IMG/VR virus record: IMGVR_UViG_3300033143_002134
Span: 1 to 20,243 of that record
Reading direction: 5' to 3' (one strand)
DNA length: 20,243 nucleotides
Origin: a virus
The translations under genes were made by a program, and so were the position numbers. Positions 2-8,860 of this stretch are shown in pieces. The notes beneath the pieces were generated by a model. That model had not been told where the DNA came from. It was given only the letters and a program-made list of their open reading frames with translations, and did no database searches. How positions within the stretch are numbered: the stretch's first letter is position 1; every line of letters starts with the position of its first letter.

Positions 2-691
2 CGGAATTATGGGAGCATACCACATTTATCAATATCTAAATTATCACAGCAAGCAGATAAAAAAATACAAATAGGTCAAGAAATAATACTCACTAAAAAA
101 GCGAGAGACTGGAAGGATACTATTATAGTTACTGAAAAGCTAGATGGGTCTAATGTGGGGGTAATTAAAAATGATGGGGTTTTAAGAGCTATAACTAGAA
201 AAGGGTATGATGCCAAGACAAGCCCATATTCTCAACACCATTATTTTGATAAATGGGTGCAAAACAATCTTGAAAAATTTGAGTGGCTACCAGAAGGGTA
301 TCGGGTTTGCGGTGAATGGATGCTTTTAACTCATGGTACTAAATATGATATTACTTACGGTAGCCCTTTTGTAGCTTTTGACTTGATAAGTGACAAAAAT
401 GAAAGATTTAGCTATGTAGAAATGTTGAAAATTTTATCATTTTATCATATCCAAACAGTGACGCTGGTTCACATAGGGCAACCAATTTCAATAAAAAATT
501 CCCTAAGTCTGTTAGGGCAATTAGTATTTACTGTGGCAGGTGAGAAGCCAGAGGGCGTTGTCTATAGATGTGAGAGAGAAGGGAGAGTGGATTTTTTGGC
601 TAAATATGTGAGAGCAGATAAAATTGATGGTGAATATTTGGGAGCAAAAGAAGTATGGAACAAGGGAACTGAAAAATACATGATTAGGTAA
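2..691 (+). CDS. RNA ligase, Rnl2-like (5' end outside window)
   Basis: ATP-dependent ligase of the nucleotidyltransferase superfamily, probably sealing nicks or breaks in RNA. The frame is open from base 2 and the true start lies upstream. Visible motifs: motif I EKLDGSN at 134-154 with the adenylated lysine at 137; GEWMLL (motif III); FDLI (motif IIIa); EGVVYR (motif IV); LAKYVR (motif V). The segment YGSIPHL before motif I is the kind of N-terminal stretch seen in Rnl2-type and phage RNA ligases. A start limited to the GTG at 155 would remove the catalytic lysine, so it is rejected. In known phages such ligases repair cleaved tRNA or have unknown roles. Here it precedes structural-type genes and shares the window with an odd tRNA-like gene. 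The alternative is a DNA ligase of the same superfamily, but no OB or BRCT domain is visible. Confidence 0.85.
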   Translation, partial: RNYGSIPHLSISKLSQQADKKIQIGQEIILTKKARDWKDTIIVTEKLDGSNVGVIKNDGVLRAITRKGYDAKTSPYSQHHYFDKWVQNNLEKFEWLPEGYRVCGEWMLLTHGTKYDITYGSPFVAFDLISDKNERFSYVEMLKILSFYHIQTVTLVHIGQPISIKNSLSLLGQLVFTVAGEKPEGVVYRCEREGRVDFLAKYVRADKIDGEYLGAKEVWNKGTEKYMIR

Positions 692-3278: not shown

Positions 3279-3793
3279 TGAAAGAATCAATCTTTCAATT
3301 CGAGCTTAAAGGCACTTTTCAAGATTTAGGTTGTTGGACGTTGAAAATTCCAGATATGATTAAGACAAAAGAAACTAGATTTATCCCAAAGAAACCAGCG
3401 GATTTAATTGTCATATGTGGGCTAGTACCTCTTTTAATCGAATGTAAGCAAATAAAGAAATGGCAGAAAATTAACCCGAACTACTTCGGCAACACTAAAG
3501 AAAAGCTTTTAAAAGTACCCTTTACAGAATACCACCAAATAAAAGAGCTAGTAAAGTTTAAAGAGGTCGCAGGTGGTTTAGCTTATTACGCTATTAACAT
3601 AAGGATAAAAGAAGAGAAAATAAACAAGTGCATATTTATCCATATAGATACTATGCTAAACATCCTTAAAAAAGGCGGTATCTCTAAAGACCAGCTAAAA
3701 ACGATGGCTTCACACGGGTATCAAGGGAAATTAAGACGATTTAACACAGAAAGATTCAGAAAACACTTTCAATTAGGTGAATTTAAAAAGTGA
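3278..3793 (+). CDS. RecU-like Holliday junction resolvase (PD-(D/E)XK nuclease)
   Basis: 171 residues. A PD-(D/E)XK active site is visible: D42 in KPADLIVI, then E55 and K57 in LLIECKQIK. Further on, EYHQIKEL with GGLAYYAINI matches the HQ...L...GG.A pattern of RecU, which resolves four-way DNA junctions. It is somewhat shorter than bacterial RecU (about 200). The ATG at 3278 is chosen because it overlaps the previous stop; the longer in-frame option from 3227 would sit inside the preceding gene. It probably works with the ERF annealing protein in phage recombination or in removing branches before packaging. Another PD-(D/E)XK endonuclease role cannot be excluded. Confidence 0.75.
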   Translation: MKESIFQFELKGTFQDLGCWTLKIPDMIKTKETRFIPKKPADLIVICGLVPLLIECKQIKKWQKINPNYFGNTKEKLLKVPFTEYHQIKELVKFKEVAGGLAYYAINIRIKEEKINKCIFIHIDTMLNILKKGGISKDQLKTMASHGYQGKLRRFNTERFRKHFQLGEFKK

Positions 3794-4734: not shown

Positions 4735-4824
4735 ATGGGAGATAAAATAGATATAATTACTATTATAGTGATATTAAATCTATATATGACTACATGGAAC
4801 TTATTAAAAAAGAATGACAAATAA
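4735..4824 (+). CDS. 29-residue single-pass membrane peptide
   Basis: AAAGGAGTGAGAGG precedes the ATG, a strong ribosome site that supports expression of this tiny frame. The product has a hydrophobic core (IDIITIIVILNLYM) of about one membrane span followed by a short Lys-rich tail, so it would sit in the inner membrane. It could be a small holin-like or host-targeting peptide; there is no direct evidence. Confidence 0.4.
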   Translation: MGDKIDIITIIVILNLYMTTWNLLKKNDK

Positions 4825-4837
4825 AAGGAGCGAGAGA

Positions 4838-4957
4838 ATGCCCAAATATAATATATTTGATGAAGGAATAAAAGACGCACCTTTAAGATTTAGGATTAAG
4901 CACCGGATAATGTGTTTTTTAACTAGAATAAGATTAGATTATTTTGATAAAGAATAA
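4838..4957 (+). CDS. 39-residue basic microprotein
   Basis: AAAAGGAGCGAGAGA precedes the ATG. The product is basic (RFRIKHRIM; LTRIRLDYFDKE) with no domain recognised. Support is the strong ribosome site and fit in a tightly packed series; coding cannot be proven from this sequence alone. Confidence 0.4.
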   Translation: MPKYNIFDEGIKDAPLRFRIKHRIMCFLTRIRLDYFDKE

Positions 4958-5146: not shown

Positions 5147-5499
5147 TGAGCTATAAAATTTGGCAAGAACCGGCAAATATAACGGGGTTTAAGAAATCAA
5201 AGACAGGTATTAAATTAAGTGTGGATTTGCTCGACAATATAAGCCCTGAAAGCTGGGCGCATTTATCAACGTTGACAGATCAAGACGGGTGGTTCACTTT
5301 TAACGTGCATCAAATTGAGGCAGAAGATATTATTGACTTACCAGAGCTTAAAAAGACTGAGAAGAAAAGCAAAAGTCAACAACTTAGAGAGACATTATTC
5401 GGTTTATGGAGTAGGGAAAAAAGCGAAAAAGATTTTAAAGATTATTATGGTGCTATGATTGACAAGCTTATTGAACATTATAGTAAAAAGGGGTATTGA
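5146..5499 (+). CDS. conserved-type phage protein upstream of HNH nuclease
   Basis: 117 residues, no named domain. It contains KTGIKLSVDL, SWAHLSTLTDQDGWFTFNV and a C-terminal KDYYGAMIDKLIEHYSKK segment; I recall similar proteins in phage recombination or early regions but cannot name a family. The ATG at 5146, overlapping the upstream stop, is preferred to the GTG at 5143. The stop abuts the ATG of the HNH gene, so the two are likely co-translated and may act together in DNA metabolism. Confidence 0.65.
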   Translation: MSYKIWQEPANITGFKKSKTGIKLSVDLLDNISPESWAHLSTLTDQDGWFTFNVHQIEAEDIIDLPELKKTEKKSKSQQLRETLFGLWSREKSEKDFKDYYGAMIDKLIEHYSKKGY

Positions 5500-5820
5500 A
5501 TGATATTAACGAAATACGAACTACTACAAAGAGACAGCTTTATGTGTCAAAATCCAAAGTGTAACAAGATAGGAAATATAGACACTTTGCAAATAGCGCA
5601 CAGGGTCAAGCAGGGATCTGGAAGCATAAAGACAGTACAGAACTTTATAGAACGAAAATATAATAAGGTGATAACTAAGAAGCAAGCTAAAGACATTATA
5701 AATGATGAGCAAAACGTTGTCATTGCTTGCCCTTTATGCAACAGCGGATTTAACATATATTTCAAGACTAAGATCATGGAACAAAAAATAATAGATATTT
5801 ATGAAAAAGAATACAAATAA
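5500..5820 (+). CDS. HNH-type endonuclease
   Basis: 106 residues. Zinc and catalytic layout: C16 and C21 (CQNPKC), H34 in QIAHRV, N72 in DEQNVV, then C77 and C80 with CPLCN. This is the order expected of HNH (beta-beta-alpha-metal) nucleases, though a final His is not obvious. A small phage HNH protein next to ERF and a RecU-like enzyme suggests a role in recombination, or a free-standing homing nuclease. The stop TAA lies inside the AATAATACTTGACAA element carrying the next promoter. Confidence 0.7.
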   Translation: MILTKYELLQRDSFMCQNPKCNKIGNIDTLQIAHRVKQGSGSIKTVQNFIERKYNKVITKKQAKDIINDEQNVVIACPLCNSGFNIYFKTKIMEQKIIDIYEKEYK

Positions 5821-5823
5821 TAC

Positions 5824-5852
5824 TTGACAAAATATATAATAAAATATAATGT
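5824..5852 (+). promoter_or_regulatory. sigma70-like promoter P2
   Basis: TTGACA (5824-5829) with TAATGT at 17-base spacing (5847-5852); a better TATAAT (5845-5850) lies at only 15. It drives the ERF gene, whose ATG is at 5879. It is close in sequence to the promoter at 9752 over the whole -35 to -10 span. Confidence 0.7.
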
Positions 5853-5878
5853 AAGTAAAAAGTAAAGAGGAGTAGAGA

Positions 5879-6466
5879 ATGAAAACATCAGACACTATAA
5901 TAGAAATATCAAAAGCATTATGTGAAGCAAGCAAAGAGTTAAAAAACGTAGATCAGAATGCAGACAATCCATTTTATAAATCTAAATATGCGGACTTACC
6001 TCATATTATAGACACGGTCAAAGAGACTTTATATAAAAACGGTTTATGTGTAATACAAGACGCTTTATTAAGTGAAGAGAAACATATCAATGTTAAGACT
6101 TTATTAGCGCACATTTCAGGTGAATGGATAGAAACGACTGTTACCGTACCTTGTACAAATGGCAATAGATACGATGCTCAAACGGTCGGCGGTGCTATTA
6201 CTTACGGTAGAAGATATGCTTTATCAGCTTTATTAAATATTAGTAGCGAGCCAGACGATGACGGTAACGGATTAGTAGGTAAAGAAAAAGAAAATAATCA
6301 AAGAGTAGATATAGAGAAGGTTGTTGCAACATTAAGCAAAATGACCCTAGAAGAAGCTAGAGAGTTTGAAAAAGAAATACTAGGAAAATGCAAAACCCAG
6401 AAACAAACTGATTATGCTCAAAGTAAATTTGATTATAGATATAAGCAGTTAGGGGCTAACAAGTGA
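5879..6466 (+). CDS. erf: ERF-family single-strand DNA annealing protein
   Basis: 195 residues. ERF-family hallmarks: NPFYKSKYADLPHII near residues 30-45, and GGAITYGRRYALSALLNI with the following EPDDDGNG tail at about 108-132. ERF proteins (type: P22 Erf) anneal complementary single strands in phage recombination and genome circularisation. The charged C-terminal third is variable, as usual. The start follows AAAGAGGAGTAGAGA. It is transcribed from its own promoter and overlaps the next gene by four bases (GTGA). Confidence 0.88.
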   Translation: MKTSDTIIEISKALCEASKELKNVDQNADNPFYKSKYADLPHIIDTVKETLYKNGLCVIQDALLSEEKHINVKTLLAHISGEWIETTVTVPCTNGNRYDAQTVGGAITYGRRYALSALLNISSEPDDDGNGLVGKEKENNQRVDIEKVVATLSKMTLEEAREFEKEILGKCKTQKQTDYAQSKFDYRYKQLGANK

Positions 6467-6645
6467 ATAAAAGAAAGCAAATAGAGAATACTGTAAAAGA
6501 CCTAGTATCTTCACTTTTGTATTATGACCGTAAAGAATGCGACCATTTAAAACCGTACGAAATAGAAGAAGCAATTGCCAGAAAAGAAATATCAATTGAT
6601 GAGATAGTCTACATTTTTGATAAGGAATTAAGGGACAATGTATGA
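6463..6645 (+). CDS. 60-residue hypothetical phage protein
   Basis: Starts at GTG in a GTGA overlap with erf. The product has a helix followed by EEAIARKEISIDEIVYIF; no domain recognised. The four-base overlaps at both ends support coding. It may assist the annealing protein, by position only. Confidence 0.55.
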   Translation: MNKRKQIENTVKDLVSSLLYYDRKECDHLKPYEIEEAIARKEISIDEIVYIFDKELRDNV

Positions 6646-6887
6646 AAAAGAAAGAGTTAATAATTGCAAACGAAGCATCAGACAGAATAATACACAGACT
6701 TAATGGTCGTATATATGGACTAGAGCGAATGGTTAAAGAACTTGTATATATTATAATGGAATGTAGAAACGAATTTCACCAATCATATGATCAACCAATT
6801 ATGGTGCTTTATTTGGAAGAGGCTATTAAAAAAATGACAGGTAAAACAATAGAAGACTTACTAAATGGAGAAAAAGATGATAATTAG
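6642..6887 (+). CDS. 81-residue helical phage protein
   Basis: ATGA overlap with the upstream gene. Helical and charged, beginning MKKKELIIANEASDRIIHRL, possibly a coiled coil; one Cys. No family recognised. It overlaps the start of the next gene. Confidence 0.55.
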   Translation: MKKKELIIANEASDRIIHRLNGRIYGLERMVKELVYIIMECRNEFHQSYDQPIMVLYLEEAIKKMTGKTIEDLLNGEKDDN

Positions 6888-7200: not shown

Positions 7201-7447
7201 ACCAATATTCGATAATGAAGAAGAGGCAAAACATATAATAGGCATAGTAAGAGGCAATAGCGATCTTGATAAAAGCCAATTACTTGATTTATTCAAATCA
7301 TATAAGCTGATTAAAAAAACACCATTAGAAGAAGCTAGAGCAAAATACAAGGCAAAATTTAACGGCTGTTTAATTCTAGGAAGTCCAGAAGAACATGTGT
7401 ATATAGAAGAACTAGAAAAAGAAAACGAGAGGCTTAAGAATGACTAA
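7193..7447 (+). CDS. 84-residue hypothetical phage protein
   Basis: Overlaps the upstream gene by eight bases. Acidic N-terminus, a helical middle (SQLLDLFKSYKLIKK) and a C-terminal charged helix ending EELEKENERLKND that looks like a coiled coil. Unknown function. Confidence 0.6.
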   Translation: MTKPIFDNEEEAKHIIGIVRGNSDLDKSQLLDLFKSYKLIKKTPLEEARAKYKAKFNGCLILGSPEEHVYIEELEKENERLKND

Positions 7448-8378: not shown

Positions 8379-8480
8379 GGCAAGGTAGCTCAATGGTAGA
8401 GGCTTCGCACTATAGAAGACACAAACATTGCGTGTTGTGATCAAGGCGGAGGGGTGCAGGTTCGAATCCTGCCCTTGCCC
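8379..8480 (+). tRNA. tRNA-like gene with a 37-base anticodon loop
   Basis: Acceptor stem GGCAAGG (8379-8385) pairs perfectly with CCTTGCC (8473-8479); unpaired base 73 is C and no CCA is encoded. D arm GCTC, AATGGTA, GAGG (three of four pairs). Anticodon stem TTCGC (8404-8408) pairs with GCGGA (8446-8450), one G-U. Variable loop GGGGT. T arm GCAGG, TTCGAAT, CCTGC is perfect. The loop spans 8409-8445, 30 bases too long, and contains its own helix (CACAA 8420-8424 with TTGTG 8435-8439). No U33 is found at the second loop position, so no anticodon is assigned. It may be an intron-bearing tRNA, a tRNA mimic or a decayed gene. Confidence 0.6.
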
Positions 8481-8503: not shown

Positions 8504-8860
8504 ATGAAAAAATTATTATTAAGTTTAGTTTTATTAGTAGGGTGTTATGATGCTGGTATAATTACTGGTATTGATTGGGGTGAAGATTACACAGAAGAGC
8601 AATTGATACGATATGAATTAAGTGTTGACGACTCTGTAGATTCTGTTATAGTAGAAGTAGTGATAGTAAAAAGGCAAGAGAGTACTTATTATTATTCAGT
8701 AGAAGAGAATAGTAAACTATATGAAATATACATTGATGTCAACCTTGCAAGCAAGCAAGAGATTACTATTACTATAGACGGGTTAACTAGATACAAGGGA
8801 ACACGCTTAAACCAATTAACAGACATATATGTAGATAATGTGACAGTAACAGAGCTATAA
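8504..8860 (+). CDS. small lipoprotein
   Basis: 118 residues. MKKLLLSLVLLVGC is a short type II signal with lipobox LVGC, so the mature protein would be lipidated at C14 and membrane-anchored. The mature part is acidic and beta-rich (SVIVEVVIVKRQES; QEITITIDGLTRYK), suggesting a small Ig-like or beta-sandwich domain. AAGGAGTGAGACA gives a strong start. Phage lipoproteins of this kind include superinfection-exclusion factors and Rz1-like spanins. It is too long and not Pro-rich enough for typical Rz1, so exclusion or a surface role is the better guess, unproven. Confidence 0.65.
   Translation: MKKLLLSLVLLVGCYDAGIITGIDWGEDYTEEQLIRYELSVDDSVDSVIVEVVIVKRQESTYYYSVEENSKLYEIYIDVNLASKQEITITIDGLTRYKGTRLNQLTDIYVDNVTVTEL

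What the first reader, a model, noticed from the sequence alone, without database searches (positions are those of the whole stretch)
8379..8480. tRNA-like gene with a 30-base insertion in the anticodon loop
Perfect 7-bp acceptor and 5-bp T stems, a canonical TTCGAAT loop and AATGGTA D loop, and a 5-bp anticodon stem surround a 37-base loop carrying its own 5-bp helix. Bacterial and phage tRNA introns are normally group I or II and far larger, and none leaves a U at loop position 2 here. The RNA could be a tRNA with a tiny intron, a tRNA mimic without decoding function, or a decayed gene that kept its outer arms. Preserved pairing in the outer arms argues against simple decay.
Basis: partly seen in the sequence, partly recalled or inferred. 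Interest (0 to 1): 0.65.

Follow-up and report, generated by a model that had tools for sequence, protein, structure and literature searches.

The report
Phage tRNA mimic with swollen anticodon arm
A phage genome carries a gene whose RNA would fold like a transfer RNA at the end that enzymes grip, but whose code-reading loop is blown up to 37 bases, so it most likely does not read the genetic code; it may be a tRNA look-alike with another job, although a broken tRNA gene cannot be excluded.

Summary
Window 8379-8480(+) is a tRNA-like gene (RF00005, 43.6 bits, E 1.8e-6) with perfect acceptor and T stems, tRNA tertiary-contact bases, a 5-bp anticodon stem and a 37-nt loop. The inner 5-bp helix is not significant: 42% of shuffles have one as good. 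ARAGORN calls no tRNA. No bulge-helix-bulge; U33 survives only in a shifted register giving a Leu anticodon in a non-Leu body, so an intron is unlikely. The nearest independent relative (L002) keeps the acceptor/T half at the same site, with one mismatch per stem, but has another D arm and another insert; it carries two more odd tRNA-likes, one with a 5-nt anticodon loop and one acceptor-T minihelix. Best reading (0.45): a non-decoding tRNA mimic in which only the top half is kept. A decayed tRNA is nearly as likely (0.33). Comparable genes are common in viral contigs. One covarying subfamily sits beside a Ro60-like DUF2828 protein, so it is Y-RNA-like; the window's insert failed that family's model (2.1 bits) and its phage shows no such protein.

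The parts
8379..8480 (+). whole tRNA-like gene, 102 nt
   Evidence: RF00005 43.6 bits; also in L004 at 7212-7313, 100% identical over 260 bp
8379..8385 (+). acceptor stem, 5' strand GGCAAGG
   Evidence: 7/7 pairs with 8473-8479
8388..8402 (+). D arm GCUC-AAUGGUA-GAGG; 3 pairs, G10-G25 mismatch
8404..8408 (+). anticodon stem, 5' strand UUCGC (C8403 adds a 6th pair)
8409..8445 (+). 37-nt enlarged anticodon loop (30 nt more than the normal 7)
8420..8439 (+). inner hairpin CACAA-N10-UUGUG; not better than chance
8446..8450 (+). anticodon stem, 3' strand GCGGA
8451..8455 (+). 5-nt (type I) variable loop GGGGU
8456..8472 (+). T arm GCAGG-UUCGAAU-CCUGC
   Evidence: 5/5 pairs
8473..8479 (+). acceptor stem, 3' strand CCUUGCC; C73 at 8480, no encoded CCA
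8504..8860 (+). downstream lipoprotein-like ORF (118 aa); its start lies about 25 nt after the tRNA-like 3' end, as at the same site in L002
7440..8033 (+). upstream ORF with endolysin-family similarity (context only)
   Evidence: phrog_33083, E 2.9e-14
2..691 (+). RNA ligase (context; considered as a possible splicing or repair partner, not supported)
   Evidence: PF09414 E 2.9e-22, EKLDG motif; no link to odd tRNA-likes, 8/50 vs 3/35 records

Best explanation
A non-decoding tRNA mimic. The RNA keeps what tRNA-processing and tRNA-binding proteins grip: the acceptor-T top half and the D/T elbow bases. In place of a decoding anticodon arm it carries a long, irregular hairpin arm. Inferred steps: it is transcribed with the + strand genes between an endolysin-like and a lipoprotein-like gene, trimmed by host RNase P and 3'-end enzymes, given CCA by the host enzyme, and persists as a stable RNA that titrates, or presents its arm to, tRNA-binding proteins instead of decoding. 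Shown: the anatomy, the lack of a usable anticodon loop, and retention of an acceptor/T half at the same site in one diverged relative. Not shown: expression, processing, and any partner or target.
For: Perfect 12-bp top half plus elbow contact bases. No 7-nt U33 loop in the natural register. At the same place before the lipoprotein gene, L002 keeps T arm and acceptor (80% identity over 69 bp) while D arm and insert differ. L002's phage has two more top halves without a normal decoding arm: 3390-3458 with a 5-nt loop, and an acceptor-T minihelix in L337 at 2288-2246. Similar genes are common in viral contigs: of 81 pattern matches 53 have paired outer arms and 39 of these lack a canonical anticodon arm. 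One subfamily of this architecture is demonstrably maintained: 17 of 23 pairs show compensatory change, inner hairpin included, and it lies beside a Ro60-like protein.
Against: No conservation data on the window's own insert: L004 is essentially identical and L002's insert is unrelated. The inner fold is not better than chance and the D stem has lost a pair. L002's copy has one mismatch in each outer stem and scores only 24 bits. 26 of 28 further terL-relative records have no tRNA-like match. The insert does not match the one maintained subfamily, and no Ro60-like gene was found in this phage or L002.
Confidence: 0.45

Rival explanations
1. A decayed tRNA gene: a phage tRNA took a roughly 30-nt insertion in its anticodon loop and is now a young pseudogene whose other arms have not yet eroded.
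For: One insertion would leave the outer arms intact; G10-G25 is already broken; the inner helix is not better than chance; L002's syntenic copy has mismatches in both outer stems; relatives without any tRNA exist.
Against: 12/12 outer pairs and the elbow bases are intact; L002 keeps top halves three times without a normal decoding arm; tRNA-likes with enlarged anticodon regions recur in phages and one subfamily is clearly maintained.
Confidence: 0.33
2. An RNA-processing punctuation mark: the acceptor-T minihelix is a minimal RNase P/RNase Z substrate that cuts the late phage transcript between the endolysin-like and lipoprotein-like genes; the anticodon arm is free to drift.
For: Retention of only the top half in the window and three L002 elements, one a bare acceptor-T minihelix; the 3' end lies about 25 nt before the next start codon in the window and at two L002 elements.
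Against: Most relatives have no such element; no transcript-end data. It overlaps with the mimic reading and cannot be told apart by sequence alone.
Confidence: 0.12
3. A working tRNA with a tiny intron removed by an unknown endonuclease and sealed by the phage RNA ligase.
For: The phage encodes an RNA ligase; one stem register, CUUCG/CGGAG, would leave CUCAAGG with U33 and anticodon CAA.
Against: No bulge-helix-bulge; a Leu anticodon in a type I body is unexpected; RNA ligase is absent from the L002 record and not linked to odd tRNA-likes; the same pattern in cellular genomes finds many archaeal intron tRNAs, whose loops begin normally, unlike this one.
Confidence: 0.05
4. A Y RNA proper, partner of a Ro60-like protein encoded elsewhere in this incomplete genome.
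For: Same layout as the subfamily found beside Ro60-like DUF2828 proteins; the record is a 20-kb fragment while relatives are 36-40 kb.
Against: The insert-only covariance model of that subfamily scores 2.1 bits; no TROVE or DUF2828 in G003, G001, G002 or G011, and no DUF2828 profile match in the window.
Confidence: 0.04
5. A phage attachment site carrying part of a host tRNA.
For: Phage attachment sites often hold tRNA 3' halves (general knowledge).
Against: The 5' half is tRNA-like too, it lies amid structural and lysis genes, and no tyrosine integrase is present in G000, G001 or G003; serine integrases were not tested.
Confidence: 0.01

Closest known systems
Canonical type I bacterial tRNA (Rfam RF00005)
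   Same: acceptor, T arm, D loop, elbow contact bases, 5-nt variable loop
   Different: 37-nt anticodon loop without U33 in the natural register; D stem 3 bp; ARAGORN does not call it
Bacterial Y RNA (YrlA), tRNA mimic that tethers Ro60/Rsr to PNPase (described in PMC8394870 and PMC7790460)
   Same: tRNA-like D, T and acceptor arms plus an extra non-tRNA helical part
   Different: YrlA's 5' and 3' ends form the Ro60-binding stem; here the ends are in the acceptor stem as in tRNA and the extra helix sits in the anticodon arm; no Ro60 gene found
Subfamily A1 found here: tRNA-likes beside DUF2828/Ro60-like genes (Aeromonas phage Aeh1, L060, L072, L244, L284, L307, L311)
   Same: tRNA ends, intact top half, enlarged anticodon arm with an inner hairpin
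   Different: A1 has a covarying 7-bp hairpin followed by an ACAGCAA-like motif and a Ro60-like gene in the genome; the window has neither
Archaeal intron-containing tRNA (bulge-helix-bulge)
   Same: extra sequence in the anticodon loop
   Different: no bulge-helix-bulge; no normal loop after excision in the natural register
Engineered tRNA scaffold (an RNA of interest replaces the anticodon arm; recalled from Ponchon and Dardel's method, cf. PMC3753655)
   Same: works-like analogy: the tRNA top half could protect a foreign hairpin from nucleases
   Different: natural and untested; analogy only

Membership tests
functional elongator tRNA | 7-bp acceptor and 5-bp T arm with TTCRANN loop | tested here: met
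functional elongator tRNA | 5-bp anticodon stem with 7-nt loop carrying U33 | tested here: not met
   37-nt loop beginning AC
functional elongator tRNA | expressed and aminoacylated | not testable with these tools
   no RNA data
BHB-intron tRNA | bulge-helix-bulge at exon-intron junctions and a normal loop after excision | tested here: not met
   MFE and splice enumeration; only a shifted register leaves U33
group I/II intron tRNA | intron core recognised by Rfam models | tested here: not met
   only RF00005 reaches threshold; no intron model even at E up to 5; insert 30 nt
Y RNA / subfamily A1 | insert with the 7-bp hairpin and ACAGCAA-like motif | tested here: not met
   insert-only model R2: 2.1 bits
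Y RNA / subfamily A1 | Ro60-like partner (TROVE or DUF2828) in the genome | tested here: inconclusive
   none in G003, G001, G002, G011, but the window's genome is incomplete
tmRNA | tmRNA architecture with tag reading frame | tested here: not met
   ARAGORN and Rfam find none
tRNA pseudogene | erosion of outer stems across relatives | tested here: inconclusive
   window 12/12 outer pairs; L002 copy 6/7 and 4/5; only one diverged relative
phage attachment site | tRNA 3' part only, next to an integrase gene | tested here: not met
   5' half present; no tyrosine integrase in G000, G001, G003

The most novel reading that the evidence does not exclude
The gene is one of a large, little-described class of phage RNAs that keep the tRNA top half as a handle and swap the bottom half for lineage-specific hairpins, acting as decoys or scaffolds for tRNA-binding proteins; the Ro60-linked subfamily would be the one branch with an identifiable partner.
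Probability: 0.3. Interest if true: 0.7.

Novelty: new variant of a known kind. Interest (0 to 1): 0.4.

Why it matters
Gene finders either skip such genes (ARAGORN here) or label them as ordinary tRNAs: the Aeromonas phage Aeh1 element is annotated tRNA-Val and the PX29 one a two-piece tRNA-Leu. If phages keep tRNA-shaped RNAs that cannot decode, counts of phage tRNAs and codon-supply arguments are partly wrong, and tRNA mimicry becomes a candidate phage tool against tRNA-cutting defences or for steering RNA decay. The Ro60-linked subfamily found on the way makes that idea directly testable.

Tried and rejected
Intron (no bulge-helix-bulge). RNA ligase as a splicing partner (8/50 vs 3/35 records, absent from L002's record). 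Attachment site. Type II parse with a long variable arm: CUUC/GAAG stem with an 8-nt loop, 1.3 kcal worse than the simplified cloverleaf and no U33. Y RNA membership by insert model R2; the whole-tRNA model R1 scores 54.8 bits but also scores ordinary tRNAs, so it is not diagnostic. DNA relatives among GenBank phages: no match for the 6-kb neighbourhood, only short T-arm or D-arm matches for the element. terL in cellular genomes: none, so the host is unknown. Lipoprotein neighbour in viral contigs: only the near-identical record. Promoters and terminators no better than chance. Literature searches found no description of this architecture in phages; the key Y RNA papers (Chen 2014; Burroughs and Aravind 2016) could not be read here, so prior description of the A1 subfamily cannot be excluded.

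Full report
What is there. The window is a 20,243-base virus record. At 8379-8480(+) Rfam's tRNA model matches end to end with 43.6 bits and a 37-nt stretch inside the anticodon stem, while ARAGORN calls no tRNA. The acceptor stem (7/7), T stem (5/5) and anticodon stem (5/5, plus C26-G44) pair; the D stem has three pairs and a G10-G25 mismatch. A scan for an acceptor with contiguous T arm finds this place and no other 7/7 + 5/5 place in the window, against 0 per shuffled record. The inner hairpin is not significant. The lowest-energy fold makes the arm one long irregular hairpin. All genes around it run on the + strand; the tRNA-like lies between a small ORF behind an endolysin-like gene and a lipoprotein-like ORF.

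Close relatives. L004 is nearly identical over 12 kb and carries the same element, so it tells nothing. L002 (terL 67% identical) has, at the same place before its lipoprotein gene, an element at 4795-4910 whose T arm and acceptor match the window's (80% over 69 bp) with one mismatch in each stem, a Leu-type D arm and a different insert. The same phage has 3390-3458, a tRNA-like whose anticodon arm reads GGUAU-UGAAA-AUACC, a 5-nt loop, and an acceptor-T minihelix without a D arm (L337 2288-2246). L003 has none. Of 28 further terL-relative records 26 have no match; L149's record has one ordinary tRNA near its end and L223's record a sub-threshold match. Within the window-L002 pair the top half persists and no element has a normal decoding arm.

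Beyond close relatives. Of 81 matches in held loci, 53 have paired outer arms and 39 of those lack a canonical anticodon arm. The same pattern in one genome from each of 84,980 cellular species gave 102 stretches; of the 80 held, 50 have paired outer arms without a canonical anticodon arm, roughly half of them archaeal tRNAs with introns and half bacterial tRNA-likes. Collection sizes differ and the viral scan was truncated, so no rate ratio is claimed. Searches with the window's own T-arm/acceptor 3' strand returned mostly odd tRNA-likes; L007 is an ordinary tRNA-Ser.

A maintained subfamily. Nineteen elements (A1) share a hairpin followed by an ACAGCAA-like motif; 17 of 23 predicted pairs show compensatory change. 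Eight of nine phage records with A1 also encode DUF2828, against one of 41 others in the same search (hypergeometric about 1.5e-7, worked by hand; record lengths differ and the link was noticed after the fact). In bacterial loci L244, L284, L307 and L311 the protein gene lies next to or near the RNA, with RtcB in L244. Pfam was run only on the L307 protein; RtcB in L244 was recognised by eye, and the L244, L284 and L311 proteins by their alignment with the phage proteins (A3). A modest AlphaFold model (pLDDT 66) has phage phiLo Ro60 as its best solved match and the only one at E below 0.001 (E 9.5e-5, TM 0.34); a sequence profile search of solved structures did not find Ro60. A1 is therefore most likely a Y RNA of tRNA topology. 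This shows that the window's architecture can be a functional RNA; it does not show that the window's element is one.

Is the window's element an A1 RNA? No, by the tests run: an insert-only model gives 2.1 bits, and no DUF2828 or TROVE was found in its near-identical record or relatives. One search had no positive control and G000 itself was not, but G003 covers most of the window.

Mechanism. I favour a non-decoding mimic processed as a tRNA. Shown: anatomy, no usable anticodon, top-half retention in one relative. Inferred: transcription, processing, stability, partner. Decay remains close behind because the insert has no comparative support and the D stem and L002's outer stems show mismatches. 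Punctuation by RNase P fits the same facts. An intron is poorly supported.

Noticed in passing
L060 4649-5198 with ORF 5293-6858; L244 4649-4758 with 5170-6699; L284; L307; L311; L072; Aeh1 96384-96505: Subfamily A1: covarying tRNA-like RNAs with an enlarged anticodon arm beside or in the same genome as DUF2828/vWA proteins that resemble phage Ro60, with RtcB in L244; probably Y RNAs with tRNA-like ends.
   Followed up: partly
L251 2460-2576, L252, L253, L267, L271, L288, L298, L310, L236: Related-looking tRNA-likes in Flavobacterium and other Bacteroidota; in L251 followed by a 746-aa ORF without a confident Pfam family and by RtcB.
   Followed up: partly
L037, L053, L067, L069, L080, L091, L106, L283: Second subfamily (A2) with GUUCCUA after the inner hairpin; no DUF2828 in the phage records searched; partner unknown.
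   Followed up: no
L245 3766-5108 (Candidatus Paraprochloron terpiosi): Run of at least six expanded tRNA-likes of about 120-136 nt in a cyanobacterial symbiont chromosome.
   Followed up: no
L043, L054, L055, L057, L059, L079, L090, L093: Viral tRNAs with CUUAUAC-type loops (UAU anticodon) and long, type II-like variable arms.
   Followed up: no
AY266303 96384-96505; GU396103 83777-83893: The same Aeromonas phage element is annotated as tRNA-Val in Aeh1 and as a two-piece tRNA-Leu in PX29; unannotated in other relatives.
   Followed up: yes
L039, L051, L058, L065, L078, L085, L104, L108: Another recurrent viral tRNA-like family with AGUAGGCAAACAAAUG-like sequence in the enlarged arm.
   Followed up: no
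window 2-691: RNA ligase (PF09414) at the window edge; absent from the L002 phage record.
   Followed up: yes
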